IMG/VR virus record: IMGVR_UViG_3300014499_000031
Location: 1 to 25,438 of that record
Origin: a virus
DNA length: 25,438 bases
Direction: 5' to 3' (one strand)
Of this stretch, positions 3,463 through 25,438 are shown in pieces (within the stretch, counting starts at the first letter, position 1; each line of letters opens with the position of its first letter). Made by a program: the position numbers and the translations under genes. Under the pieces are notes generated by a model. That model did no database searches. It was not told the origin of the DNA and worked only from the letters and a program-made list of their open reading frames with translations.

Positions 3463-3684
3463 ATGGAAGGTGTAGATGTTTACGATATTAAGAAAATAAA
3501 GCTAGATAAAACGCCTAGGCCAGCACAGATAAAATTGTTAGAATTCATAAAAGAATCTATCAAATCTAATCACAAAGGTATTATAGTCGATGCTCCAGTT
3601 GGGTGTTTAACGAAAAATGAAAAAATCAATATATATGTATTAAAAGATATAAACATTGATCATGACATTAAAAAAACATTATGA
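3463..3684 (+). CDS. DinG/XPD-like helicase, extein piece 1 plus short N-intein (73 aa)
   Basis: Residues 1-47 are the N-terminus of a superfamily 2 helicase and stop in the middle of the P-loop (GIIVDAPVG). Residue 48 is Cys, starting a block-A-like intein segment (CLTKNEKINIYVLKD) that ends at residue 73 with TGA. The missing half of the P-loop, SGKS, appears at 5304 directly after an intein C-terminus (ISNHN). Joined, they give DAPVGSGKS. The piece thus encodes 47 extein residues and a 26-residue N-intein, too short to be a functional helicase alone. The next gene starts inside its end (ATG 3662). The helicase function is established below from the other pieces; trans-splicing is inferred. 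Confidence 0.85.
   Translation: MEGVDVYDIKKIKLDKTPRPAQIKLLEFIKESIKSNHKGIIVDAPVGCLTKNEKINIYVLKDINIDHDIKKTL
3604..3681 (+). other. Split intein 1, N-terminal fragment (26 aa)
   Basis: It begins with the catalytic Cys1 (CLTKNEKINI, block A) immediately after the P-loop Gly and ends at the ORF stop. Block B is not in this piece, so the split point lies between blocks A and B. A 25-residue N-intein of this kind is known from the AceL-TerL intein; most natural split inteins have N fragments near 100 residues. Confidence 0.8.
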
Positions 3685-4864
3685 AATTTCAAAAGCTATA
3701 AGAAAAATAAAAAATAATTGTAATTATGATTATATTTATAATTTTATAATTGAATATAACGACGAATTAAACTTAAATTTATCTAAAATCGATGAATGGA
3801 TTAAAGAAGTATTAAATAAAATAATTTCTTCTAAAAAAGAATCTTTAAATTTTAATTTTTTGAATTTAAAATACAAAAAAACTTCTAAAGAATATTGGTT
3901 GATACGTGGATGGAATGAAGATTATAGTATAAATAAAGCAAAAGAATGTAATAAAGTATACTCTCATAAAATACAATTAAAAGAAAATGGTTATAGTGAT
4001 GAAGAAATAAAAAATATAATGCTTAAAAGATTTAAAAAAGGAGCGCAAACCTTAAAGAATAGAAGTGATTATGATGAAATAAGAAAAAAATATGGACATA
4101 AAGTAGATAAATATTTAAAGAGAATAAATGCAAATACTAATAAAAATTATACATTAGAAGAAGCAAAAACTATAATATCAGAAATACAAAGAAAAAATTC
4201 AAAAAGAAAATGGGAAAAACATAAACTAAATCCTAGATTTGATAAAATAAACACCAGATTAGAATTTTATTTAGCTAAAGGTTTAAATAAAGAAGAAGCA
4301 GAAAATGCTTTATATGAGAGACAAATAAAAAATGGATTAAATTATTACATTAATAAATACGGTTTAGAAAAAGGAAAGGAAAAGTATAATAAAAGAATAG
4401 AAGAATACAGAAAAAAGATAAAATTACACAGAAAAAAGTATCCACAAAAATGGATTACATCAGGTAAAAGATATAGTGATAGTTCTAAACGTTTTTTTGA
4501 TAAAATTATAGAAGAAATAACTGAATTAAAAGATATGAAAATTTATTATGCCGAAAATGAATATTTTATTTTTGATGAAAAACGTAAAATATATTTCTAC
4601 GATTTTTATATTAAAGAACTTAATTTAATTATTGAATATAATGGATTAGTTTGGCATCCTAAAGAAAGAATACAAAAAAATTGGAAACATGTTTATACTA
4701 AAAAAAGTTCCGAAACTTATTATGATTATGATAGATATAAAGAGCAATTAGCTATAAGTAAAGGTATTGATATAATGTCAATATTTGAGGATGAATTAAT
4801 TTATAAAAGAAAACAAATAATAAATGAACTATATTCAAGAATTAACAAGATTAAAAATAATTAA
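3662..4864 (+). CDS. Homing endonuclease, Vsr-like type, in the gap of split intein 1 (400 aa)
   Basis: This free-standing gene lies exactly between the two fragments of split intein 1. The C-terminal third has FYDFYIKELNLIIEYNGLVW followed by HP, then DRYKEQLAISKGIDIMSIFED. That is the D...I-E-x-N-G...H...K...G...I-x-E-x-E pattern of Vsr-like (EDxHD) endonucleases, the type reported in 'fractured' split-intein genes. The N-terminal two thirds are basic DNA-binding modules: EYWLIRGWNEDYS near 80 and YYINKYGLEKGKEKYNKR near 230, the latter shared with the GIY-YIG protein at 23788. ATG 3662 is preferred over TTG 3656. Composition is visibly more AT-rich than the helicase exteins, as expected of a mobile gene. 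Likely role: cutting intein-free helicase alleles so the insertion spreads. Confidence 0.8.
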   Translation: MTLKKHYEISKAIRKIKNNCNYDYIYNFIIEYNDELNLNLSKIDEWIKEVLNKIISSKKESLNFNFLNLKYKKTSKEYWLIRGWNEDYSINKAKECNKVYSHKIQLKENGYSDEEIKNIMLKRFKKGAQTLKNRSDYDEIRKKYGHKVDKYLKRINANTNKNYTLEEAKTIISEIQRKNSKRKWEKHKLNPRFDKINTRLEFYLAKGLNKEEAENALYERQIKNGLNYYINKYGLEKGKEKYNKRIEEYRKKIKLHRKKYPQKWITSGKRYSDSSKRFFDKIIEEITELKDMKIYYAENEYFIFDEKRKIYFYDFYIKELNLIIEYNGLVWHPKERIQKNWKHVYTKKSSETYYDYDRYKEQLAISKGIDIMSIFEDELIYKRKQIINELYSRINKIKNN

Positions 4865-5981
4865 TGATTTATCATATTATTATGATACGAATTTTAATAA
4901 TTATAGTGATAATGAATTAAATATTTTTTTTACTAAACACGTAAAAAAAAATAAACAAGAAATTTCAATGATAGATTTTTATAATTTAAAAGATAAAACT
5001 GTATTAATTGAATCTTTAGACGGATTTGTAAAAGTCGGTAATAAAATAAAAAAGGAAAATTTAGAATGTTATACATTATCTTTAATAGATAATCGTAAAT
5101 TATCTGGGGCATTTAATCATTTAGTAGAAACTGAAAGAGGTTGGATAAAACTTATAGATTTAACTAAAAATGATTTTGTTTTAACTATTGATGGTTTTAT
5201 AAAAGTAAAAAATATAAGACAAATAAAAACACAAGAGGTATATGATTTAGAATGTTTGCATATAAATCATAGATATTTATCTAATGGTATTTCGAATCAT
5301 AATAGCGGCAAATCATATTTAGCAATTATGTTCATGGATTGGTTTAAAAAGAACTTTGACATTTCTGCTAATTTTGATGTCTTAACAAATTCAAAAATTC
5401 TTCAAGAGCAATATACCCAAGATTTTGATTTTATGAACTCTTTATGGGGCAAAGGATCATACCACTGCGATACATACGATACTGACTGCGGAACAGGCGG
5501 AGAATGGTGCAGAATACAAAATAAGAAGTGTGAAGCTTGTCCATACTCTACAGCAAAATATAGATTTGAAAATGGAGATGTAGCATTGACCAATTTTCAC
5601 TTGTTTCTGACATATATGGTTTATATGCCGCAAGCTTGGAAACGTTCGTCTAGAGTCTTAGTAGTAGATGAGTGTTTACATCCAGATACATTAATTACAA
5701 TAGGAGATGATACAAAAAAGAAAATTATTGATGTGAAAATTGGAGATATTGTTAAAACCGTCAATGAACAAACAAAAAAAATAGAAAATAAACCAGTAAA
5801 AAAATTACATAAAAACCTAAATAAAGGTCAACAAATGTATGAAATAGAGTTAGAAAATGGCTCTACTATTAAAATAACTGGCAACCATAAAGCTAAATTA
5901 ACCAATGGGCAATGGAAAAAAGTTGAAAATTTAGATGGAACCGAAGATATTTTATATATAAATGAAATAGAATCACATTAA
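4824..5981 (+). CDS. DinG/XPD-like helicase, middle piece: C-intein 1, extein 2, N-intein 2
   Basis: Three parts are read in order. Residues 1-160 end in ISNHN, a C-intein with His-Asn terminus; block B-like FNHLVETERGW is near residue 97. Residues 161-283 are helicase: SGKS completes the P-loop, then a Cys-rich region (YHC, TDC, EWC, KKCEACP), TNFHLFLTY, and the Walker B strand RVLVVDE. Residues 284-385 start CLHPDTLITIGDD and carry TGNHKAKL (block B), the N part of a second intein, ending in TAA. The cysteines (102, 109, 116, 123, 126 of the spliced protein) match the Fe-S domain of XPD/DinG helicases. The start could be ATG 4968 instead, giving a 112-residue C-intein. This piece would have to splice at both ends. 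Confidence 0.85.
   Translation: MNYIQELTRLKIINDLSYYYDTNFNNYSDNELNIFFTKHVKKNKQEISMIDFYNLKDKTVLIESLDGFVKVGNKIKKENLECYTLSLIDNRKLSGAFNHLVETERGWIKLIDLTKNDFVLTIDGFIKVKNIRQIKTQEVYDLECLHINHRYLSNGISNHNSGKSYLAIMFMDWFKKNFDISANFDVLTNSKILQEQYTQDFDFMNSLWGKGSYHCDTYDTDCGTGGEWCRIQNKKCEACPYSTAKYRFENGDVALTNFHLFLTYMVYMPQAWKRSSRVLVVDECLHPDTLITIGDDTKKKIIDVKIGDIVKTVNEQTKKIENKPVKKLHKNLNKGQQMYEIELENGSTIKITGNHKAKLTNGQWKKVENLDGTEDILYINEIESH
4968..5303 (+). other. Split intein 1, C-terminal fragment (112 aa or more)
   Basis: The segment contains TVLIESLDGFVKVG, a block-B-like SGAFNHLVETERGW, a further strand pair (FVLTIDGFIKVKNIRQI), block F (VYDLECLHINHRYL) and block G ending in NHN, followed by extein Ser (+1). From Met 4968 it is 112 residues. 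Together with the 26-residue N piece this gives a mini-intein of about 138 residues with no endonuclease domain. Confidence 0.8.
5673..5978 (+). other. Split intein 2, N-terminal fragment (102 aa)
   Basis: It starts with Cys1 (CLHPDTLITI) directly after the helicase Walker B VVDE. It contains block B as GSTIKITGNHKAKL (T-x-x-H) followed by WKKVENLDGTEDIL, then stops at TAA 5979-5981. The length and split point are those of canonical split inteins. Confidence 0.85.
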
Positions 5982-5988
5982 ACAAACA

Positions 5989-6834
5989 ATGAATAATGAA
6001 ACTAAGGATAAAATATATGATTTAATAGAATTATATAAAAATAGATTTGTGCACAGTTCTAATATAAAAAGTGATTTTTTAAAAATCTTAAATGACAATA
6101 ATATAATTTTTGAAGAATTAAAAGATAAAAAATTAAATGTCGAGATAGTATTTGATTATTTGACTCTTCATTGGAATAAAAAATGTGCATTAGAAGGATG
6201 TCATAATATAACACAAAGAAATACTTTATGGCCTAGAAGAAATGGGCCTAAAGTTATGTATAAAAAAACTTGCAGTAAAGAGTGTAATTCCAAATTAGCT
6301 TCAAATAGACAAAAAGGCACAAATAATACTTCTTTTAAAATGTCAGAAGAAGCAAAAATAGAAGCCAGAAAAAAGCAATCTATAACAATGAAAAGAAAAA
6401 TATTTGAAGGTGAATTTATTCCTAATATTACTAATTCTTGGGCCGGATCTAAAGTATCATTATTTATAAATGGTAAAAATATATATTATAGATCTAGTTG
6501 GGAAGCATTTTTTCATTTGTGTAATCCTCATTTAGATTATGAAAAAATAATTGTTAAGTATTTTAAAAACAAAGAAGAAAAAAATTATATTGTGGATTTT
6601 GTAGATTTCAATAAGAAAACAATTTATGAAATTAAACCAGAAAAATTAAAAAGAGGTTCTATATATGATACAAAATGTAATGCGGCTTTAGAATGGGCAA
6701 AAATAAATGGATATGTTTTTACTATAATAGATAATACTTGGTTTTTAGAAAATGTTAAAAAGAATAAACATTTATTGGGAGAACAGAATGATAAAAATAT
6801 AATCATGAAAAGATTAAACCAATTTGATAAATGA
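5989..6834 (+). CDS. Homing endonuclease, PD-(D/E)XK type with Cys4 zinc finger, in the gap of split intein 2 (281 aa)
   Basis: Four cysteines (C66, C71, C95, C99 in CALEGC and CSKEC) suggest a zinc finger in the first third. A basic, NUMOD-like stretch (NNTSFKMSEEAKIEARKKQS) follows. The nuclease core begins at about 167 with YRSSWEAFF (E172). YIVDFVD (D203) and IYEIKPEKL (E214, K216) then form a D...E-x-K catalytic motif of the PD-(D/E)XK fold, as in TnsA-like and phage homing enzymes. K229 and helix AALEWAKINGYVFTIID complete the fold. The gene fills the gap between the fragments of intein 2, starting 7 nt after the N-intein stop and ending in an ATGA overlap with the C-intein gene. Nuclease class differs from intein 1 and 3 enzymes. 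Confidence 0.8.
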   Translation: MNNETKDKIYDLIELYKNRFVHSSNIKSDFLKILNDNNIIFEELKDKKLNVEIVFDYLTLHWNKKCALEGCHNITQRNTLWPRRNGPKVMYKKTCSKECNSKLASNRQKGTNNTSFKMSEEAKIEARKKQSITMKRKIFEGEFIPNITNSWAGSKVSLFINGKNIYYRSSWEAFFHLCNPHLDYEKIIVKYFKNKEEKNYIVDFVDFNKKTIYEIKPEKLKRGSIYDTKCNAALEWAKINGYVFTIIDNTWFLENVKKNKHLLGEQNDKNIIMKRLNQFDK

Positions 6835-6935
6835 AGATTAAATCGATAAAAAAAATTAATTATTCTGATGATGTATATAATTTACACATAGAAGATAATC
6901 ATAACTATTTTGCTAATGATATATGTGTTAGTAAT
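6831..6935 (+). other. Split intein 2, C-terminal fragment (35 aa)
   Basis: It starts at its own ATG and ends in Val-Ser-Asn before the +1 Cys. The penultimate residue is Ser instead of the common His, which is seen in some active inteins. The length fits canonical C fragments of 35-40 residues. Confidence 0.85.
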
Positions 6936-8075
6936 TGTCATTCTTTAGAAGAAGTATTGTGCGACTTTATAACTACTAAGATAAGTAAGCCGTTATTGAA
7001 GAGAAATGGATTCACGGATCAAGAGGCAGAACAAGCCATGTGGTGTTTTGGAGAAAATCCTGAGAATATGGCTTTGGAAACATTCATAGAAATTGTTAAC
7101 GAATCATTTTTGCCTATAGTTAAGACGGTTATAAATCGCTTAGCAAGAGAAGCCGAAGAGACCAAGAGCATGCAGGCTATTAATTTCTTGCAAGGATTAA
7201 CTCAGCATCACTTCAAATGGGAGAATTTAGGATTAGAAGTACAAGCTAAGCCAAACAATTGGATATTAGAAGCTGAGAACATATATAAAAATGATAAGAA
7301 GACTGGAAAAGTGATAGACAAATACATAGAGTTCACCGCTCAACCGGTATGGGCATCTGAATATTTGGAAGAGAAAGTTTGGAGTCGTTATGATTTTATA
7401 TTATTTATGTCCGGCACTATTTTAAACAAAGAATTATTCTGTCAAATAAATGGATTGAATATTGAGGACACTGCATACATACAGATGGATTCTCCATTTC
7501 CTGTGGAAAATAGGCCTATTTATTATTTTTCTAAATTAGGCAAACAAACATTTGCCACAAAGGAATTAACATGGGGCAAGCAAAAGACGGTGTTAGAAAA
7601 AATATTGAAGAAATATAAGAACGAAAAAGGCATAGTTCACACCGCTAATTACGAGATACAAAAATGGGTCCACAAAGAGTTTGAGCATACTAATAGATTA
7701 TTGACTCATGATTCTACTAATAGGTCAGAATTGCTTCAAGAGCATTACAACAGCGAAGAGCCTACGGTATTAGTTTCTCCATCGCTGATGACAGGAATAG
7801 ATTTAGCCGACGATTATTCTAGGCATCAAACGATTCTTAAAATTCCTTATCCTAATTTGAAGAGCCAGAAGGTTAAGAAGAGAATGGAAACTAATAAAGA
7901 TTGGTACAGCTGGAGAACTGCTGTCGATATGCAACAATCTTATGGAAGAAGCATACGAAGCATGGAAGATCATGCAGATACTTATATGCTTGATGGATCA
8001 TTCACTAATTTTTTAAAATACAGTAGGAAATTTTTATTGGACTGGGTAGTAAATGCAATACAATTTGTAGATTAA
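6831..8075 (+). CDS. DinG/XPD-like helicase, C-intein 2 plus C-terminal extein (414 aa)
   Basis: Residues 1-35 are the C-terminal intein fragment (block F VYNLHIEDNHNYF, block G ending CVSN). Residue 36 is the +1 Cys of CHSLEEVL. Joined to VVDE from 5672 it gives VVDECHSLEE, a DECH-type Walker B box like DEAH in DinG/XPD. The remaining 379 residues carry helicase motifs IV-VI: FILFMSGTI, TVLVSPSLMTGIDLADD, and QQSYGRSIRSMEDHADTYML (Q-x-x-G-R-x-x-R with a late Asp). The complete spliced helicase would be 47+123+379 = 549 residues. A role in phage DNA replication or repair (5'-3' Fe-S helicase) is inferred from the family. The ATG overlaps the endonuclease stop (ATGA). Confidence 0.88.
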   Translation: MKIKSIKKINYSDDVYNLHIEDNHNYFANDICVSNCHSLEEVLCDFITTKISKPLLKRNGFTDQEAEQAMWCFGENPENMALETFIEIVNESFLPIVKTVINRLAREAEETKSMQAINFLQGLTQHHFKWENLGLEVQAKPNNWILEAENIYKNDKKTGKVIDKYIEFTAQPVWASEYLEEKVWSRYDFILFMSGTILNKELFCQINGLNIEDTAYIQMDSPFPVENRPIYYFSKLGKQTFATKELTWGKQKTVLEKILKKYKNEKGIVHTANYEIQKWVHKEFEHTNRLLTHDSTNRSELLQEHYNSEEPTVLVSPSLMTGIDLADDYSRHQTILKIPYPNLKSQKVKKRMETNKDWYSWRTAVDMQQSYGRSIRSMEDHADTYMLDGSFTNFLKYSRKFLLDWVVNAIQFVD

Positions 8076-12855: not shown

Positions 12856-13331
12856 TATATTTCTGATAAAATTTTAGGAACTTTCTTTTCTTCCACACGT
12901 AAGTTATTAGTATAATATATCTTAGGAATTTTAAATGTATTATGCGGATAACCGGCACAATAATTATATTTTTCTATAGTCCAATATTCCAAAAGAGTAT
13001 TTCTCATTCTCTCTAAATCTCCTTTTATGAAATTTTGAACTTTTAATAAATCTTCAGGAGTTTTTTCTTTATGTATGTCTATGCTTTTAGGATAATGATC
13101 AATAAAAAATAAATCATTATCATACTGATAATTTTCCATTTTCAATCTAATAGAATCTCCATGGTTTAAATTAATATTAAAATAAAATCCAGACTCTATT
13201 AAAACCAATTCTCCATTTATACGATGCCTTTTACTTTCTAAAAATTCATCATTAGAATGAGTTGCTTCAATTTTGGTAATAGAATAAATATGATCCGTGT
13301 TAATAGCGCTTCCTAATATTTCGACTATCAT
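12855..13331 (-). CDS. Hypothetical protein, 158 aa
   Basis: The function is unknown. It has a beta-rich N-terminal domain starting VEILGSAINTDHIYSITKIE and containing GELVLIESGFYFNINLNHGD. A helix (DLLKVQNFIKGDLERMRNT) and a short basic tail follow. The start shares its A with the TAA of the RNA ligase C-terminal piece (TAATG), so it is coupled to that gene. The similar N-terminus of the following 130-aa protein suggests an old tandem duplication. Confidence 0.7.
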   Translation of the reverse strand: MIVEILGSAINTDHIYSITKIEATHSNDEFLESKRHRINGELVLIESGFYFNINLNHGDSIRLKMENYQYDNDLFFIDHYPKSIDIHKEKTPEDLLKVQNFIKGDLERMRNTLLEYWTIEKYNYCAGYPHNTFKIPKIYYTNNLRVEEKKVPKILSEI

Positions 13332-13942
13332 TACTTCTTGCTATCATAGTGCTTATTAATAATTTTAAAAGATCCTTCAGCATGTTGAACTACAACGCCT
13401 TCGAATGGCTTGCCATTCAATTCGGTAATACCAGAAGAATAATGCTGTATGATTTCTTTGGTCAATACAACATCTTTAGCAATAATTTCTACTGTTGGAA
13501 GATTTAATTTTTCAGCAATGTTCAAGAAATAATATTTATCTCCTTTGCGAGCATATCTTCTTTCCTCTGTCAAATATACAGAGAACATAGCCCAGCCTGC
13601 AGGAAGTTTAGAGTGAGGATTCAATTCTAAGCCTTGTATTCCAATCCCATAAGATTCTCCGCGCAAACAAATAGAAATATTCTCTTCGGTACAAAACTCT
13701 ATTAATTTATTTTTAATATCATATCTTTCGATTTGATCGGTGTAACGGTTGCTGAATATCTCATGCAATTCTAAAGTGCGTCCTAATACTCCAAAACGTT
13801 TATCAGGAACATGATAAAAGAAACTACAATTGTGTACTAATATATTATTTGCAAAAAAATTGTTGTTATTTGCTACTTCAATATCATATCTTTTAGATTG
13901 AGATTGTATTTTTCTGATTGATTTTATTTTTACTATTTGCAT
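13331..13942 (-). CDS. RNA ligase (DRB0094/Rnl5-like), C-intein 3 plus C-terminal extein (203 aa)
   Basis: Residues 1-38 are an intein C fragment (block F RYDIEVANNNNFFANN, then ILVHN) and residue 39 is the +1 Cys of CSFFYHVPDKRFGVLGRT. The 165 extein residues carry the remaining ligase motifs: ICLRGESYGIGIQG (motif III), KPFEGVVVQH (motif IV, E-G-V-V) and GSFKIINKHY (motif V, K-x-x-N/K). The catalytic Lys motif is in the other piece (ends at 15304). Spliced, the enzyme is 163+165 = 328 residues, a normal length. The ATG lies inside the 3' end of the endonuclease gene, overlapping by 50 nt. Confidence 0.85.
   Translation of the reverse strand: MQIVKIKSIRKIQSQSKRYDIEVANNNNFFANNILVHNCSFFYHVPDKRFGVLGRTLELHEIFSNRYTDQIERYDIKNKLIEFCTEENISICLRGESYGIGIQGLELNPHSKLPAGWAMFSVYLTEERRYARKGDKYYFLNIAEKLNLPTVEIIAKDVVLTKEIIQHYSSGITELNGKPFEGVVVQHAEGSFKIINKHYDSKK
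13829..13942 (-). other. Split intein 3, C-terminal fragment (38 aa)
   Basis: It starts at its own ATG and ends with Val-His-Asn before Cys+1, with a full block F/G consensus. It is canonical in length. It pairs with the 98-residue N fragment at 15010-15303. Confidence 0.87.
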
Positions 13943-14936
13943 ATTGATTTATTTTTATTATTAATAATTCTTTAATTTCGTCATTTGTTTTTTTATGTAT
14001 TTCATTTTCCCATATTGTTATAATATTATGACCTTTTTCCTTAGCATAATCATGTTTTAGTTTATCTCTTTTCCAAATGTCCTCAGCCTTTATGTGAGCA
14101 AATTTAAAAAATACAATATCATCGGCTTTATAAAAATTGGGATTAGCATGCCAGTAATTTCCATTCATTTCGATTATTAAATTGAAATCAGGTAAATAAA
14201 TGTCATAATAATATATTTTGTTGTTATATCTATTTTGAGTTTCTTTTGGTTTTTTAATTTTAAATTGATGAATATAAGTAAAATTTAATTCTGATAATAT
14301 TTCAACCAATTTTATTTCTGGCTTACTAATTTTATAGCCTTTGTGTTGTCCATTAGCTATTTTTTCTTTAGATTTATCGGAATGTATATTTTTATTAAAA
14401 AAATCTTCTTTTTCTTTATCTGATAAAGCATAAAACCATTTTTTCCATCCTATTGCTGTTTTTTCATGTGCTTCTTTAGTATTTATTTGTTCGATTATTT
14501 CTTTTATTTGAAATACATTATCTACGCCGTATTTATCCTTTACTGTTTTATTACGTTTTTCAAAAATTTTAGTTCCTCTAGATAAAACATTAACAGTGCC
14601 ATATTTTTTTAAACACGTTTCTTTGTTCTTTTTTTGACCTATAGTAAGAGCACTTTCGGAAAACGTTCTTTTTTTAATATTAAACCATTCCAAAAGAAAA
14701 AATACTAAATCCCAAGGTACATTTAATTTTTTATAATCTGGTAAACTATGTGTTTTATAATGGTTTTCAAAATTTTCTTTATTATTTATAAAATTAAACG
14801 TGTTTAAATAATTATATTGAATAAATTCGAATTTAATTTGTTTTTTACTTATACCATTTATGATTTCATTATTATAACACTTTATATAATGAGGACTTCT
14901 TGCATGGTTTTTACATTTAGGACATGTTGTTTTCAT
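13893..14936 (-). CDS. Homing endonuclease, Vsr-like type, in the gap of split intein 3 (347 aa)
   Basis: The N-terminus has a CPKC knuckle (C5, C8) with a further Cys at 20. Repeated K-Y-G-x-x-N modules (KETCLKKYGTVNVLSR near 106 and KDKYGVDNVFQ near 133) are typical DNA-binding motifs of phage homing enzymes. The C-terminal nuclease reads YYYDIYLPDFNLIIEMNGNY with WH, then DIWKRDKLKHDYAKEKGHNI and TIWENEI. This is a D...I-E-M-N-G...H...D-x-x-K...G...I-x-E-x-E pattern, as in Vsr-like/EDxHD enzymes and in the intein 1 endonuclease. It lies exactly between the two intein 3 fragments and likely targets intein-free RNA ligase genes. It is visibly AT-richer than the ligase exteins. Confidence 0.8.
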   Translation of the reverse strand: MKTTCPKCKNHARSPHYIKCYNNEIINGISKKQIKFEFIQYNYLNTFNFINNKENFENHYKTHSLPDYKKLNVPWDLVFFLLEWFNIKKRTFSESALTIGQKKNKETCLKKYGTVNVLSRGTKIFEKRNKTVKDKYGVDNVFQIKEIIEQINTKEAHEKTAIGWKKWFYALSDKEKEDFFNKNIHSDKSKEKIANGQHKGYKISKPEIKLVEILSELNFTYIHQFKIKKPKETQNRYNNKIYYYDIYLPDFNLIIEMNGNYWHANPNFYKADDIVFFKFAHIKAEDIWKRDKLKHDYAKEKGHNIITIWENEIHKKTNDEIKELLIIKINQYANSKNKINQKNTISI

Positions 14937-14974
14937 TTTCTTTAATCAGACAGAATTTAATCTATATATTAAAG

Positions 14975-15006
14975 AAAGTTGACAGATTTAGTAAAATATC
15001 AACTTT
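14975..15006 (-). repeat. 8-bp inverted repeat between N-intein 3 stop and endonuclease start
   Basis: AAAGTTGA (14975-14982) pairs with TCAACTTT (14999-15006) around a 16-nt loop, directly after the TAA of the N-intein piece. An AATATATAGATT promoter-like element follows on the minus strand. It may attenuate, or sequester translation of, the endonuclease gene. Confidence 0.45.
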
Positions 15007-15792
15007 TTATAAAACTACTACATTTTCATCTCCTTTTAAATCTTTTAATTGTCTATAACATTTTAATTCCGGTAAATAAACTCTATGATTCGAGGTTAAT
15101 GTTAATATTTCTCCGGTTTCTGTTTCTAATTCAAACCAATCATTATCGTTTTCTTGTATTAAATGGTTTTCAATCTTTTGCCATTCTTCTTCATTACTTT
15201 CGGTATTAAAACATTTTACTTTGCCTTTATACTTAGAATCGCATATTTCTTTAATTGTTTTAATACCATCTTTGGTTTCAACTAATGTTTCTTCTGAAAG
15301 ACAACTTTGCCCGTCCACTTTTAATCCGATATCTACAAGTTGTCCATAAGGCAATTTGTGATCTGGAAAATTTTCGTAACGTTCTTCGTCAGTTTTAGGT
15401 TGTTGATATGGCAATCCGCCTTTTACTTTTAGATCATTTGGTGCTGGTGGCTCATAGTGAGTAACTCCAATCATAGCGGCAACATCAGTTCCTACTTCAA
15501 GATCTTTTAAATCATTTCCATTAGGAAGAATATCAAACGGTATCACAATTCCCTCAGACCATTCTTTTCTTAAAAGACATGCTTTAATACGTTTAGGAGA
15601 ATACTTGCGGTATTCTTCAGTCCATGATTCCACTGGCAACAGAGAATCAGGTCTAACATAAACAATTTTTTCTCCGCCTTTATAAAGGCCTTTTTGAGTT
15701 ACGCATTGAAACCCTAAGACTTTTACTAAGTCTAATTTGTCGGCATTCCAGTGAGCCTTAACTTCTCCTATTAATTCGATACTTGCATCCAT
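15007..15792 (-). CDS. RNA ligase (DRB0094/Rnl5-like), N-terminal extein plus N-intein 3 (261 aa)
   Basis: The first 163 residues match the layout of the DRB0094-type RNA ligases. An N-terminal OB-like domain carries ADKLDLVKVLGFQCVTQKGL and VYVRPDSLLP. Next comes RIKACLLRKEWSEGIVIPF, then the nucleotidyl-acceptor motif LKVDGQS with Lys158. Directly after that Ser, Cys164 starts an intein (CLSEETLVETKDG) running to TAA. Joined to CSFFYHV at 13828 it gives KVDGQSCSFFY. The family seals RNA nicks using ATP. The gene heads a leftward operon divergent from the 15862 gene; a TATAATAG element lies at 15810-15817 on the minus strand. Neither piece alone has all ligase motifs. Confidence 0.87.
   Translation of the reverse strand: MDASIELIGEVKAHWNADKLDLVKVLGFQCVTQKGLYKGGEKIVYVRPDSLLPVESWTEEYRKYSPKRIKACLLRKEWSEGIVIPFDILPNGNDLKDLEVGTDVAAMIGVTHYEPPAPNDLKVKGGLPYQQPKTDEERYENFPDHKLPYGQLVDIGLKVDGQSCLSEETLVETKDGIKTIKEICDSKYKGKVKCFNTESNEEEWQKIENHLIQENDNDWFELETETGEILTLTSNHRVYLPELKCYRQLKDLKGDENVVVL
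15010..15303 (-). other. Split intein 3, N-terminal fragment (98 aa)
   Basis: It opens with Cys1 (CLSEETLVETKDGIKTI, block A). Block B reads GEILTLTSNHRVYL, with T-x-x-H, followed by YRQLKDLKGDENVVV. It sits immediately after the KVDGQS ligase motif. Architecture is canonical. Confidence 0.87.
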
Positions 15793-20572: not shown

Positions 20573-21232
20573 ATGATTGAATATCCAAAGTTCGCATATA
20601 TTTTCCCTCCTCGTGCCGAGAACGCGGTTCCAACCACTGAACTTGATGTATATGATAATGGTTATTATTTAGCTCAGCCTAAATTAAATGGGGATTGTGT
20701 TGAGATATACACAAACGGGATCGAAGTCATTGTGATGGATAGGCACAAAAAACAATTCAATAAGTGCAATGATACTCTTTTAGAAAAATATAAACATCTT
20801 CATCGTGGAACTAAAGGCAATTGGATGATTCTTGTAGGAGAATTCATGATCAAATCTAAAAGGGATCGTTTTGATAAAATATGGAATGAAAAGTTTGTTA
20901 TCTTCGACATCATTGCATACGATGGAATGCAATTGATCGGAAAGACATTCAAGCAAAGAGTAGAATTACTCGATGAACTTTATGGTCTAAATGAAGGATT
21001 CAACCAATCTGATGATAAATTTCTTCTTAAAACCGACATTGAAGATATTTATAGAGTTAAATCCTTTTTCGAAAATTTTAAAGCATTATACGAAGAATTA
21101 ATTCAGATAGATATGTATGAAGGATTCGTCTTTAAAAGATGTAGCGCGCCATTAGAGAACGGACAAAAAGTAAATAATAATGCACTCTCACAATTTAAAG
21201 TGCGGAAACAGACAAAAAATTATTTATACTGA
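20573..21232 (+). CDS. Adenylating DNA/RNA ligase-like nucleotidyltransferase, 219 aa
   Basis: Nucleotidyltransferase motifs occur in order: AQPKLNGDCVEIY (motif I; Lys then L-N-G in place of x-D-G), RHKKQFN (motif Ia region), MILVGEFMIK (motif III), KFVIFDIIAYDG (IIIa), MYEGFVFKR (motif IV) and SQFKVRKQ (motif V, K-x-R/K). These are the conserved residues of the ATP-dependent ligase/capping superfamily. At 219 residues it is essentially a minimal adenylation domain without a C-terminal OB fold. The Asp-to-Asn change in motif I is unusual. Whether it seals RNA or DNA cannot be told. Its last 13 nt overlap the convergent GIY-YIG gene. Confidence 0.75.
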   Translation: MIEYPKFAYIFPPRAENAVPTTELDVYDNGYYLAQPKLNGDCVEIYTNGIEVIVMDRHKKQFNKCNDTLLEKYKHLHRGTKGNWMILVGEFMIKSKRDRFDKIWNEKFVIFDIIAYDGMQLIGKTFKQRVELLDELYGLNEGFNQSDDKFLLKTDIEDIYRVKSFFENFKALYEELIQIDMYEGFVFKRCSAPLENGQKVNNNALSQFKVRKQTKNYLY

Positions 21233-22290
21233 TTCATGTGTGAACATAATTCATTTATCCATTTATTTCTTACACAAGCATTATAGGCGTTAATATTATT
21301 TATACCAAATTCTTTTTTGGTTTTATATTTTAGTGCTATTGCTCCACATTTTTCTTTAGTCCAATATACAGATTGGACTGTTTTATTCATGTGCGAACAC
21401 AATTCATTTATCCATTTATATCTACCACATGCTATATAACAATGAATATCATTAATTCTAAATTCTTTTTTAGTTCCGTATTTTAGTGCTATTAATCTAC
21501 ATTTTTCTTTTGTCCATTTTTTAGTTCCTCCAATTCCTCCGGTTTTATTTTTGTTTAAAATGATCCATCCTTTATTTTTATAATCATTTACAAAATTCCC
21601 TTCTTCTATTTTAGCTAATTCTACATCTATATAATCAATTAATTTTTTGAATATAGGAGTTAAATTCGTTTTTTGAATATGTTTAAAAACTTGACTTTTA
21701 GGATTTGTTAAATGTTTTATATTTCTATCTTCTAAATTTCCAGTCAATCCGACATAAACATGATTGTTCGAAAATTCATAACTATAAATGCATCTTTTAT
21801 GAGAATTTCCTATAACTTTCATGTGTGAACATATTTCTTCTAACCAATTATTTATTTTTGCCCATCTATATGAAATTTTACTTCCGATTTTATAATGCAT
21901 TTTTATTTGATATTTTAAAGCTTCTTCTTTGCATTTTTCTTTAGTCCAAAAGTCTTTAGATTTATAAGTCATCCCATTACATACATAGTTCATGTGTGAA
22001 CATATTTCATTTAGCCATCCATTTTTATTAGCTACTCCATGTGCTATTTTATCTTTGATATTAAATTCGTTTCTAGTTTTATATGCTAATGCTATTTCTC
22101 TACATTTTTCTTTTGTATAATATCCTTTAGGTTTTATTTTTTGAATCATATGAGAACAAACAAAATCTAGCCATCCGTTTCTTTTTGCCGCCTGATATGC
22201 ATAAGAATTTCTTCCGAATTTTTTTCTGCTTTCGTATTTTAATGCTTCCTCTTGGCATTTATCTAAAGTCCAATAATTTTTTACTTTCAT
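21220..22290 (-). CDS. GIY-YIG endonuclease with five flanking CSHM repeats, 356 aa
   Basis: A central GIY-YIG core (residues 167-250) reads CIYSYEFSNNHVYVGLTGNL with DRNIKH, then AKIEEGNFVNDYKNKGWIIL. It supplies the Tyr pair, Arg189 and a Glu near 229. It is flanked by five copies of a 43-residue module, W/Y-T-x-E-K-C...A-L-x-Y...F...W-x-x-x-x-C-S-H-M. Copies lie at 7-48, 58-100, 115-157, 259-301 and 310-352, three before and two after the core. These are probably DNA-binding units giving long-site specificity. It is a likely free-standing homing endonuclease. It converges on, and slightly overlaps, the ligase-like gene. It is AT-rich like the other endonucleases here. Confidence 0.85.
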   Translation of the reverse strand: MKVKNYWTLDKCQEEALKYESRKKFGRNSYAYQAAKRNGWLDFVCSHMIQKIKPKGYYTKEKCREIALAYKTRNEFNIKDKIAHGVANKNGWLNEICSHMNYVCNGMTYKSKDFWTKEKCKEEALKYQIKMHYKIGSKISYRWAKINNWLEEICSHMKVIGNSHKRCIYSYEFSNNHVYVGLTGNLEDRNIKHLTNPKSQVFKHIQKTNLTPIFKKLIDYIDVELAKIEEGNFVNDYKNKGWIILNKNKTGGIGGTKKWTKEKCRLIALKYGTKKEFRINDIHCYIACGRYKWINELCSHMNKTVQSVYWTKEKCGAIALKYKTKKEFGINNINAYNACVRNKWINELCSHMNQYK

Positions 22291-22586: not shown

Positions 22587-23729
22587 ATGGCCACAAAAAA
22601 ACCAGCAACAACTAATTACACTCCTGATGAACAGCTTTATTTAAAAGCTAAGGAAGCTTATTACAAAGGCGAACCAATCATGTCCGACGAAGATTTTGAC
22701 ATCTTAGAAGATACCTTAAGAAACGAAGATTCGTTTGTTGTTGAAATAGTTGGAACTTCTAAAAAAGGTCCTAAATTAGATGTGCCGCATCCTACTCCAA
22801 TGCTTTCTTTGGATAAGGTAAAATTTAAAAAGAATTATGTGCCTTACCAAGAGGCAGTTCATAAATTATATTCTAAAGGCAAAGGCAAAATTATATATGA
22901 GCCTAAATTGGATGGAAATGCTATCACTATCACATACGAAAACGGAAACTTGATTTCCATAGCTTCTCGTGGAACTGGAGTATTAGGACAAAATTATACC
23001 GACAAATTAAAAAGCAAAGTCCCAGCAAAAATAAAAGATTTTACCGGCGAAGTTCGTGGAGAATGCGTGATTGATACAACATTGTTTGATCAAAAATATT
23101 TAACCTCAGAAGACCCAACCGCTAAGACATACAAAAATGCCAGAAATTTCGTAGCCGGTATTTTAAGCTCTGATATTGATAAAACAGTATTAGAGAAATT
23201 AAAAGACATTGATTTCGTTGCATTCGATGTTAAAGGATTAGAATTGGAAGAACCTTCTAAATGGTTAGCTTCAAAAGGATTTGAAGTATTAGATTTTACT
23301 GTATTTACTATTGAAATAAATGAAGAAACATTTGTTCGTATCTATAAAGAATTTGCTGAATATCGCGAGACTTGCAAATATCAATTGGATGGTATCGTTG
23401 CTAAGTTTGTCGACCCTAAATTAAGAGAAGAATTAGGAGAAACAGGACATCATCCTAATTGGGCATTAGCAATTAAATTCGTATCTCAACAAGTTTCTAC
23501 CGGAATAAATGGCATTGAATTAGGAATGACCAAACGTGGAGAACTTGCACCAGTTGCTCTTTTAGATCCTGTAGAGCTGATGGGTTCCACTGTAAGACGA
23601 GCATCATTATATAATGCTTCATGGATGATTGCTAATCGTTGTTATCCTGGAGCTGAAGTTTCTATCATAAAATCTGGAGACATCATTCCTGTTATAACTG
23701 GAATTGTTAAACCGGCTCCGATTCTATAA
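22587..23729 (+). CDS. ligA: NAD-dependent DNA ligase, N-terminal half (adenylation and OB domains), 380 aa
   Basis: The domain Ia signature for NAD binding is present (AYYKGEPIMSDEDFDILEDT), then HPTPMLSLDKV. The catalytic motif is EPKLDGNAI with Lys107. GEVRGECVI (motif III), KYQLDGIVAKF (motif IV) and ALAIKF (motif V) follow. The OB domain reads MTKRGELAPVALLDPVELMG and ends with GDIIPVITGIVKP. The protein stops exactly where a normal LigA enters its zinc finger, HhH and BRCT domains; these come from the gene at 24841. So NAD-dependent ligase is encoded in two parts, as also known for phage T5. It should adenylate itself, but needs the other half for efficient DNA binding. ATG 22587 is 3 nt after the 60-aa gene. 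Confidence 0.93.
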   Translation: MATKKPATTNYTPDEQLYLKAKEAYYKGEPIMSDEDFDILEDTLRNEDSFVVEIVGTSKKGPKLDVPHPTPMLSLDKVKFKKNYVPYQEAVHKLYSKGKGKIIYEPKLDGNAITITYENGNLISIASRGTGVLGQNYTDKLKSKVPAKIKDFTGEVRGECVIDTTLFDQKYLTSEDPTAKTYKNARNFVAGILSSDIDKTVLEKLKDIDFVAFDVKGLELEEPSKWLASKGFEVLDFTVFTIEINEETFVRIYKEFAEYRETCKYQLDGIVAKFVDPKLREELGETGHHPNWALAIKFVSQQVSTGINGIELGMTKRGELAPVALLDPVELMGSTVRRASLYNASWMIANRCYPGAEVSIIKSGDIIPVITGIVKPAPIL

Positions 23730-23753
23730 TACTACCAGATTTTATAATAAAAA

Positions 23754-23781
23754 CTTTAATATATAATAAAAAATATTAAAG
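23754..23781 (+). repeat. 9-bp inverted repeat before the GIY-YIG gene
   Basis: CTTTAATAT (23754-23762) and ATATTAAAG (23773-23781) form a perfect stem with a 10-nt A/T loop, ending 6 nt before the endonuclease ATG. A TATATAATA promoter-like element overlaps it. It could fold in read-through mRNA and limit endonuclease translation. Confidence 0.55.
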
Positions 23782-23787
23782 TAAATT

Positions 23788-24696
23788 ATGAAAATATGTG
23801 GTATTTATTCATGGACAAATACAATAAATGGTAAAAAATATATTGGAGAAAGTAAAAATATCGACACTCGATGGATTAAACATGAGCAAAATGCTAAATT
23901 AGGAATAAGAAGTAAATTTTATAATGCTTTAAGAAAGTACGGCAGTAATATTTTTGTTAAAGAAATTTTAGAATTGTGTGATAAAGATTCTGATAAAATG
24001 TATATGTTAGAAAGAGAGAAATTTTATATGTTAAAATTCGATTCAGTTAAAAATGGATATAATTCATCTATTTTATATGATACTATATCCAATAATATAA
24101 ATAAAGTCGAAATTTATAAAAAGATAAGTAAAAATAAAAAGGAATTAAATAAATCTTGGATATACAAAGATAATAAATCTAAATGTGTTAATGCTGATAT
24201 ATTAAATAATTATTTAAAAGATGGATGGAATTTAGGTAGAAAATTTAGTCAAATACATAAACAAAATATTTCTAAAGCACTTAAAAAATTATGGAATGAA
24301 GGTTATATGCCTTCTGAAGAATCTAGAGCAAAAATGAGTACTTTCAAAGATAAAAACCATACTGAAAAAACATTAAAGAAAATGCGTAAAGCATGTAAAA
24401 ATCAATATACATTAAAATGGTTTGTAAAAAGATATGGCAAATTAGATGGATTTTTAAAATATAATGATAAATGTAAAAAACTTAAAAATCGAAAAATGGC
24501 TAACGGTATTGATTGGTTTATTAGTAGATATGGAATAGAAGAAGGCATTAAAAAATATCAATTAAAACAAGAAAAATTAAGTAAGAGAAAAAAGACATTT
24601 ATAAATAATAGTAATGTATGTAAACTTATATCTTTAAATGAATTAGAATCGTATATTAATAATGGATGGACTAAAGGTATGTTAAAAGCCTGTTAA
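23788..24696 (+). CDS. GIY-YIG homing endonuclease between the DNA ligase halves, 302 aa
   Basis: The N-terminal GIY-YIG domain reads CGIYSWTNTINGKKYIGESK with R28, E75 (MLEREKFY) and N92 (NGYNSS), the full catalytic set. Next come a segment WIYKDNKSKCVNADILNNYL with KDGW (124-147), a NUMOD3-like FSQIHKQNISKALKKLW (153-169), and two repeats WFVKRYGKLDGFLKYNDK (211-228) and WFISRYGIEEGIKKYQLK (243-260). A second ELESYINNGWTKG copy ends the protein. The two-repeat module also occurs in the intein 1 endonuclease. It sits exactly between the ligase halves, and its last codons and stop lie within the promoter repeat at 24690. It is a likely agent of, or passenger at, the ligase split. Confidence 0.88.
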   Translation: MKICGIYSWTNTINGKKYIGESKNIDTRWIKHEQNAKLGIRSKFYNALRKYGSNIFVKEILELCDKDSDKMYMLEREKFYMLKFDSVKNGYNSSILYDTISNNINKVEIYKKISKNKKELNKSWIYKDNKSKCVNADILNNYLKDGWNLGRKFSQIHKQNISKALKKLWNEGYMPSEESRAKMSTFKDKNHTEKTLKKMRKACKNQYTLKWFVKRYGKLDGFLKYNDKCKKLKNRKMANGIDWFISRYGIEEGIKKYQLKQEKLSKRKKTFINNSNVCKLISLNELESYINNGWTKGMLKAC

Positions 24697-24736
24697 TAAC
24701 TTTATTTTAAAGTTTCGAATAAAAGTGGTATATTTA
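24690..24736. repeat. Promoter-containing direct repeat, copy 2
   Basis: This 47-nt copy of the sequence at 22349-22396 lacks one T and contains the endonuclease stop codon at its left edge. TATATTTA is at 24729-24736. It probably drives the C-terminal ligase gene 105 nt downstream. Confidence 0.9.
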
Positions 24737-24840
24737 TAACTTGAACCAATAAAAGAACCTAAATCAAATTTAATATTACTGTTGAGAAAATTATGACAAA
24801 AATTTTAAGAAATTAAAAATACTAATCTAAAATAGAAAAC

Positions 24841-25438
24841 ATGAACAAGAACAATGAAATACCGGAAGAATTACTCACAATATTAATATCATCTAAAACA
24901 TTAGATGAAAATGGAAAATGGCATGGTCACAAAGTGACTTACAATGGAGTGAACTTAATGGTTGAAGGTTTTGAAAATACTCCAGAATACAAAGCAATCA
25001 GAATGAACACCGCCATAACAGCTCTAGGATTCAAAGGAATTGGCCCTGCTACCGCCGAATTGTTGAGCAGTTTAAAACTGTCTGACATCATGGCTCAGAA
25101 CCCTGAAGGTCTTAAAATAATGCTTTTAAATACCGGCAATTTTAAAGAAGGAAGAGAATTGACTCTTATTATAGAAGCATTCTTTGCTTTGACTGAAGTT
25201 GAACTATGGCAGGTGATTTATTCATTCGGTTACAGAAATTGTGGCAAAACAATCAGCAAAGAGTTAGCCAAATATATGCTTAAACAAGATCATTCCTTCA
25301 AAGGATTAGAAAAGAAAGTGGTAGAAGCATTTGTAAATGACGAGGAACGCATTAAAGAAGTTAAAGAGTTTGTAGAGATATTAGAGAACAATAATGTAAA
25401 AGTTAACAAACCAAAAAGCACTGAAGGATTAGTTACCT
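24841..25438 (+). CDS. NAD-dependent DNA ligase, C-terminal half (HhH region), partial
   Basis: The frame is open from ATG 24841 to the window edge (199 codons). Residues 58-73 contain ALGFKGIGPATAELL, and further on VIYSFGYRNCGKTISKELAK occurs. These are helix-hairpin-helix units like those of the LigA C-terminal domain (GIRxVGxxxAxxLAxxF). A BRCT domain would be expected beyond the window. The zinc-finger part that should open this half appears degenerate: residues 1-50 (EIPEELLTILISSKTLDENG and onward) have no Cys. It follows the GIY-YIG gene behind its own promoter repeat and a 104-nt leader. It should join non-covalently with the product of 22587-23729. No intein residues are seen at the break. 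Confidence 0.8.
   Translation, partial: MNKNNEIPEELLTILISSKTLDENGKWHGHKVTYNGVNLMVEGFENTPEYKAIRMNTAITALGFKGIGPATAELLSSLKLSDIMAQNPEGLKIMLLNTGNFKEGRELTLIIEAFFALTEVELWQVIYSFGYRNCGKTISKELAKYMLKQDHSFKGLEKKVVEAFVNDEERIKEVKEFVEILENNNVKVNKPKSTEGLVT

What the first reader, a model, noticed from the sequence alone, without database searches (positions are those of the whole stretch)
13331..15792. RNA ligase split by an intein immediately after the catalytic KVDG motif, with a Vsr-like endonuclease in the gap
A DRB0094/Rnl5-type RNA ligase is broken at KVDGQS/C. The catalytic Lys and the motifs III-V are on different polypeptides, so activity should depend on trans-splicing. The 98/38 intein fragments and the endonuclease gene between them are complete. 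I know of no commonly described intein at this site in an RNA ligase.
Basis: partly seen in the sequence, partly recalled or inferred. Interest (0 to 1): 0.83.

Follow-up and report, generated by a model that had tools for sequence, protein, structure and literature searches.

The report
Phage RNA ligase split by an intein
A phage's RNA-joining enzyme is made in two pieces that should be stitched together by a split intein, with a mobile DNA-cutting gene between the two gene halves; this arrangement is already known for other phage enzymes, but I found no other case in an RNA ligase.

Summary
On the minus strand, an Rnl5/DRB0094-type RNA ligase is encoded in two pieces. The N-piece (15007-15792) ends in a 98-aa intein N-fragment right after KVDGQS. 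The C-piece (13331-13942) starts with a 38-aa intein C-fragment ending ...LVHN|C. Joining the flanks in silico gives a 328-aa ligase that aligns without a gap at the junction to intact relatives (KVDGQS|CSFFYH against KVDGQSCSFYYN). The gene between them (13893-14936) is a 347-aa homing endonuclease whose C-terminal domain has the Vsr/I-Bth0305I (EDxHD) fold. Most likely mechanism: protein trans-splicing rebuilds the ligase, and the endonuclease drives homing into intein-free ligase genes. Splicing, ligation and cleavage were not assayed.

This is the "fractured gene" arrangement already described for phage enzymes. None of 34 related viral ligase loci carries an intein here, and no held paper reports one. 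But five phage contigs carry related split inteins (35-40% identical IntN) two codons upstream, right after KxDG, in DNA ligases, most with a related endonuclease. So this is a new host gene and insertion site for a known kind. The same contig holds two more split inteins in one helicase and a DNA ligase broken by a GIY-YIG gene.

The parts
15304..15792 (-). RNA ligase N-extein, 163 aa: N-terminal OB-fold domain and motif I (KVDG), ending ...KVDGQS
   Evidence: PF21189 E 2.8e-10, phrog_968 RNA ligase E 3.3e-30, split point set by alignment with intact relatives
15010..15303 (-). Intein N-fragment, 98 aa (CLSEETLVETKDG...TLTSNHRVYL...), stop codon 15007-15009
   Evidence: TIGR01445 intein_Nterm 36.7 bits, cut-off 24.5; related IntN in L047, L051, L052, L054, L056
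14937..15006 (-). 70-nt spacer between the N-piece stop and the endonuclease start
   Evidence: no promoter- or terminator-like site in it above chance
13893..14936 (-). Free-standing homing endonuclease gene, 347 aa; C-terminal Vsr-like EDxHD nuclease domain about residues 200-335
   Evidence: phrog_3339 homing endonuclease E 7.4e-17; profile hits I-Bth0305I 3r3p E 7.3e-5; model domain matches Vsr 1cw0 Z 12.5 and 3r3p Z 10.8
13829..13942 (-). Intein C-fragment, 38 aa (MQIVKIKS...FFANNILVHN); its start lies inside the endonuclease 3' end (50-nt overlap, other frame)
   Evidence: TIGR01443 intein_Cterm 24.9 bits, cut-off 15.6; overlap computed
13334..13828 (-). RNA ligase C-extein, 165 aa: Cys+1 and the later nucleotidyltransferase motifs (LRGESYG, PFEGVVV, SFKIINK); stop codon 13331-13333
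   Evidence: PF09414 RNA_ligase 38.1 bits, cut-off 27; alignment A1 with 8 intact relatives

Best explanation
A fractured gene. A Cys1/Asn-C-terminal/Cys+1 split intein interrupts motif I of a phage Rnl5-type RNA ligase, and a free-standing EDxHD homing endonuclease gene sits where a contiguous intein would carry its endonuclease domain. The two precursors (163 aa extein + 98 aa IntN; 38 aa IntC + 165 aa extein) are translated separately, associate through the intein halves and undergo protein trans-splicing: N-S acyl shift at Cys1, trans-thioesterification to Cys+1, Asn cyclisation, S-N shift. The product is a 328-aa ligase with an intact KVDGQSCS motif I. The endonuclease probably cuts intein-free ligase alleles of co-infecting phages at or near this codon block, so that repair copies the whole intein-endonuclease cassette. 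Shown here by sequence: the anatomy, the splice-site residues, the exactly restored motif, the existence of empty sites, the relatedness of intein and endonuclease to known ones. Inferred: splicing, ligase activity, cleavage, homing.
For: Intein termini pass curated models; closest solved intein is the naturally split NrdJ-1 (8ubs, E 3.6e-11). Restored ligase matches NgrRnl over its whole length (family profile E 5.8e-40) and intact phage relatives up to 67% identical with no gap at the junction. Two intein-free relatives already have Cys at +1 (L010/L018, L026). No stop or frameshift in either half. The endonuclease has the Vsr/I-Bth0305I domain. The same module (IntN + endonuclease + overlapping IntC) occurs whole in other phages in DNA ligases (L054, L056). 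Fragment sizes 98/38 lie at the canonical natural split site (IntN about 100-130, IntC about 35-50; PMC13014065).
Against: No transcript, protein or splicing data. One contig only; no second RNA ligase with this intein, so constraint on the intein cannot be measured by substitution patterns. The endonuclease target is not shown, and a degenerate endonuclease cannot be excluded: its model is poor outside the nuclease domain (mean pLDDT 54).
Confidence: 0.92

Rival explanations
1. The two halves assemble without splicing into a two-subunit RNA ligase (genes in pieces, as in the split NrdA of phage Aeh1), and the intein pieces are passive or only act as a dimerisation zipper.
For: Genes-in-pieces enzymes without splicing are known in phages (Friedrich 2007, cited in PMC3653736, and in PMC10448857), and the NAD-dependent DNA ligase in this same window is broken by a GIY-YIG gene with no intein.
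Against: All intein splice-junction residues are kept (Cys1, TSNH, HN|C) and pass the curated terminus models; a passive remnant should lose them. The break lies between the KVDG nucleophile motif and the rest of the catalytic domain, not between domains.
Confidence: 0.05
2. A decaying gene: the ligase is dead, with both intein and ligase halves on their way to loss.
For: Single contig; intein-free relatives are the rule.
Against: Both halves open to their natural ends, with no internal stop; C-extein keeps the residues invariant among relatives; intein keeps the splice residues.
Confidence: 0.02
3. Assembly or binning artefact that joined unrelated pieces.
For: It is an uncultured virus record of 25,438 bases, not an isolate.
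Against: Gene order N-piece, endonuclease, C-piece is the same as in independent contigs (L054, L056); the endonuclease and IntC reading frames overlap in both; two more split inteins in the same contig show the same order.
Confidence: 0.01

Closest known systems
Fractured genes (Dassa et al. 2009, NAR 37:2560, doi 10.1093/nar/gkp095; not held, known from memory and from citations in PMC3653736 and PMC7090010)
   Same: Split intein breaks a conserved enzyme gene, a free-standing endonuclease gene (often Vsr-related) lies between the halves, phage or metagenomic origin.
   Different: Host gene is an RNA ligase; the published set, as I recall it, was DNA synthesis and repair enzymes.
Split inteins after KxDG in phage ATP-dependent DNA ligases (L047/L053, L051, L052, L054, L056; found here)
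   Same: IntN 35-40% and IntC 51-70% identical where measured; both in motif I of a covalent nucleotidyltransferase; related endonuclease in L047, L052, L054, L056; IntC start overlaps the endonuclease end in L054.
   Different: Insertion right after KxDG instead of after KxDGQS; other enzyme (PF01068); endonuclease lost in L051 and on the opposite strand in L047.
NrdJ-1 and gp41-1 natural split inteins
   Same: Canonical split position and closest solved intein sequence (8ubs E 3.6e-11; gp41-1 6qaz E 0.0064).
   Different: Other host proteins (named after NrdJ and gp41).
RtcB-family RNA ligase inteins (NF038162)
   Same: An intein in an enzyme called RNA ligase; the intein N-part is distantly similar (E 6.8e-10).
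   Different: From general knowledge, RtcB is a different fold and chemistry (no KxDG nucleophile), so the site is not homologous.
I-Bth0305I (EDxHD homing endonuclease, PDB 3r3p)
   Same: Same nuclease domain by profile (E 7.3e-5) and fold (Z 10.8, 27% identity over 97 residues).
   Different: Its name in the PDB is 'Mobile intron protein'; here the gene lies between split intein halves.

Membership tests
Fractured gene (split intein with free-standing endonuclease) | Conserved enzyme broken in two ORFs, each joined to one intein half | tested here: met
Fractured gene (split intein with free-standing endonuclease) | Separate endonuclease gene between the halves | tested here: met
   13893-14936, phrog_3339 homing endonuclease, Vsr fold
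Fractured gene (split intein with free-standing endonuclease) | Trans-splicing yields the functional enzyme | not testable with these tools
   needs expression of both pieces
Canonical class 1 split intein | Cys1, block B TxxH, C-terminal HN and Cys/Ser/Thr at +1 | tested here: met
   CLSEETLV, TSNH, LVHN|C read directly; TIGR01445 and TIGR01443 over cut-off
Canonical class 1 split intein | IntN about 100-130 aa and IntC about 35-50 aa | tested here: met
   98 and 38 aa against the ranges in PMC13014065; IntN is at the low edge
Rnl5 / DRB0094 RNA ligase | N-terminal OB-type domain followed by the nucleotidyltransferase domain | tested here: met
   PF21189 at 3-85 and PF09414 at 158-315 of the joined protein; whole-length match to NgrRnl
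Rnl5 / DRB0094 RNA ligase | Passes the equivalog model TIGR02306 | tested here: not met
   116.9 bits against a cut-off of 151.15, E 9e-34: clear homologue of the family, not shown to be an equivalog of DRB0094
Rnl5 / DRB0094 RNA ligase | Seals nicked RNA with ATP through a lysine adenylate | not testable with these tools
   needs assay; the KxDG lysine is invariant in 13 aligned ligases
EDxHD homing endonuclease | Vsr-like catalytic domain related to I-Bth0305I | tested here: met
   D245, E256, H263, D291 kept in the four related endonucleases of A8
EDxHD homing endonuclease | Cuts the intein-free allele | not testable with these tools
   needs cleavage assay

The most novel reading that the evidence does not exclude
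The split is more than a tolerated parasite. Because the nucleophile lysine and the rest of the active site are on different polypeptides, trans-splicing could time or gate ligase activity during infection, and related split inteins may have specialised on motif I of the nucleotidyltransferase superfamily (RNA and DNA ligases), hopping between enzyme classes.
Probability: 0.1. Interest if true: 0.6.

Novelty: new member of a known kind. Interest (0 to 1): 0.4.

Why it matters
If it splices, it extends fractured genes to an RNA-repair enzyme and gives a natural split intein with Cys at +1 and an active-site insertion, which makes a tight all-or-none reporter (no splicing, no ligase). Finding related inteins two codons apart in RNA and DNA ligases suggests that one intein lineage has moved between related active-site motifs of different enzymes, which can be tested with more sequences. 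For annotation it warns that the halves score as fragments and are easily missed.

Tried and rejected
Group I intron or other known RNA element in the gap: no Rfam match in the window, no tRNA. Same intein in cultured phages: none by tblastn. Same intein in one genome per species of bacteria and archaea: none. Another RNA ligase with an intein at this site: none among 34 loci found with the C-half profile; all read through KxDG in one frame in the 32 examined (the other two, L019 and L046, are matches identical in score to L018). C-half of the L047 DNA ligase: not found in its 112-kb record; those empty answers have no positive control and the record may be a fragment. Tree of the inteins: the order among RNA-ligase, helicase and DNA-ligase inteins is not resolved, so I do not claim that the RNA-ligase intein descends from the DNA-ligase ones. 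Promoter brought in with the endonuclease: promoter-like sites are no more frequent than in shuffles.

Full report
What is there. The window is the whole of an uncultured virus record of 25,438 bases. On the minus strand, three ORFs follow one another: 15007-15792, 13893-14936 and 13331-13942. The first reads as 163 aa of RNA ligase followed by 98 aa beginning CLSEETLVETKDG and containing TLTSNHRVYL. The last reads as 38 aa ending FFANNILVHN followed by 165 aa of RNA ligase beginning CSFFYHV. The intein ends pass the curated models for intein N- and C-terminal splicing regions and the joined 136 aa pass Pfam Intein_splicing. The closest solved inteins are the naturally split NrdJ-1 (E 3.6e-11), a DnaX mini-intein and, weakly, gp41-1.

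The enzyme. Joined without the intein, the halves give 328 aa. This matches Naegleria gruberi RNA ligase at E 5e-23 by single sequence, and a profile of 13 ligases matches it over its full length at E 5.8e-40. TIGR02306 (RNA ligase DRB0094) matches at E 9e-34 but below its equivalog cut-off, so it is a family member in the broad sense. Intact relatives occur in many viral contigs. N-halves are up to 67% identical and C-halves up to 65% in alignments A1 and A2. The junction needs no gap: KVDGQS|CSFFYHV against KVDGQSCSFYYN in L010. K158, D160 and G161 are invariant in 13 sequences.

The endonuclease. The 347-aa product matches phage homing endonuclease families (phrog_22677, phrog_3339) and, weakly, NCBIfam Vsr. 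A profile of five relatives picks I-Bth0305I (3r3p) first in the PDB at E 7.3e-5. An AlphaFold2 model is poor overall (mean pLDDT 54) but about 80 in the C-terminal domain, which matches Vsr endonuclease at Z 12.5 over 119 residues and I-Bth0305I at Z 10.8 over 97 residues. RAP domains of ribosomal and FASTK proteins score alike; they share the fold, so the match alone does not prove the function.

How common is it. A profile of the ligase C-half found 34 related loci in IMG/VR. All 32 that I read run through KxDG in one open frame, so the site is empty in every relative. Two of the empty sites have Cys at +1 (L018/L010 and L026), as this class of intein requires. A search with the IntN found no copy in cultured phages or in the bacterial and archaeal species genomes, but found related split inteins in viral contigs: five in ATP-dependent DNA ligases, directly after KxDG (L047/L053, L051, L052, L054, L056), and NrdA halves (L059, L060) with an HNH-type gene between. 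Identity of the IntN to ours is 35-40%; the IntC of L054 is 70% identical and that of L051 51%. L054 and L056 have the full module in the same order: N-piece, endonuclease, C-piece. In L051 the endonuclease is gone, leaving about 200 nt. In L047 it lies on the other strand and the C-half was not found in the record.

How it most likely works. From established intein chemistry: the halves associate, Cys1 forms a thioester, Cys+1 of the C-extein takes over the N-extein, the last Asn cyclises, and the peptide bond forms. The endonuclease gene occupies the place where contiguous inteins carry their endonuclease domain and would promote copying of the cassette into empty ligase genes in mixed infections. 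The first part rests on kept residues and on the behaviour of close relatives such as NrdJ-1 (reported as very fast; PMC7090010; PMC13014065). The second rests on family membership of the endonuclease. Neither is shown here.

Comparison with the literature. The organisation is that of the fractured genes of Dassa et al. 2009. That paper is not held; my account of it is from memory and from papers that cite it. Searches for papers naming an RNA ligase together with inteins found no such case. This shows only that no held open paper reports it.

Verdict. The finding is real and correctly interpreted. It is a new host gene and a new insertion site for a known kind of element. The most interesting extra is that related split inteins sit in the same active-site motif of DNA ligases, two codons away.

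Noticed in passing
window 3463-8075: A helicase (phrog_2488) is in three pieces with two split inteins: one in the P-loop (APVG|SGKS), one at the DEAH-like box (DE|CHSL). Joined, the 549 aa match phrog_2488 end to end (E 3.9e-97). Each break has an endonuclease gene (3656-4864 and 5989-6834). The middle piece carries IntC of the first and IntN of the second, so two separate trans-splicing reactions would be needed.
   Followed up: partly
window 3463-3684 and 4824-5303: The first helicase intein has an N-fragment of only 26 aa and a C-fragment of 160 aa, in the range of atypically split inteins (IntN 15-37 aa). Its C-fragment carries about 60 extra residues at the start.
   Followed up: partly
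window 22587-25438: The NAD-dependent DNA ligase stops after its OB domain; a GIY-YIG gene follows (23788-24696), and a separate ORF from about 24841 to the window end matches the later part of the ligase (phrog_3869). No intein is seen, so it may be a two-piece ligase.
   Followed up: partly
window 20573-21232: A third ligase-like protein: 219 aa with PF01068 ATP-dependent DNA ligase domain (41.5 bits, cut-off 26.2) and a KLNG motif. It lacks a recognised OB domain.
   Followed up: no
window 21220-22290: A GIY-YIG-type protein with repeated W-x-K-E-K-C modules between the two DNA ligase-like genes.
   Followed up: no
L047 3431-5513: DNA ligase N-half with IntN followed by a related endonuclease gene on the opposite strand; the C-half was not found in the 112-kb record.
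   Followed up: partly
L051 3988-5911: Split-intein DNA ligase whose endonuclease gene is missing, leaving about 200 nt: a split intein after loss of its endonuclease.
   Followed up: no
L055 4004-4927: A free-standing relative of the endonuclease in a 735-kb uncultured phage, between unrelated genes and with no intein beside it.
   Followed up: partly
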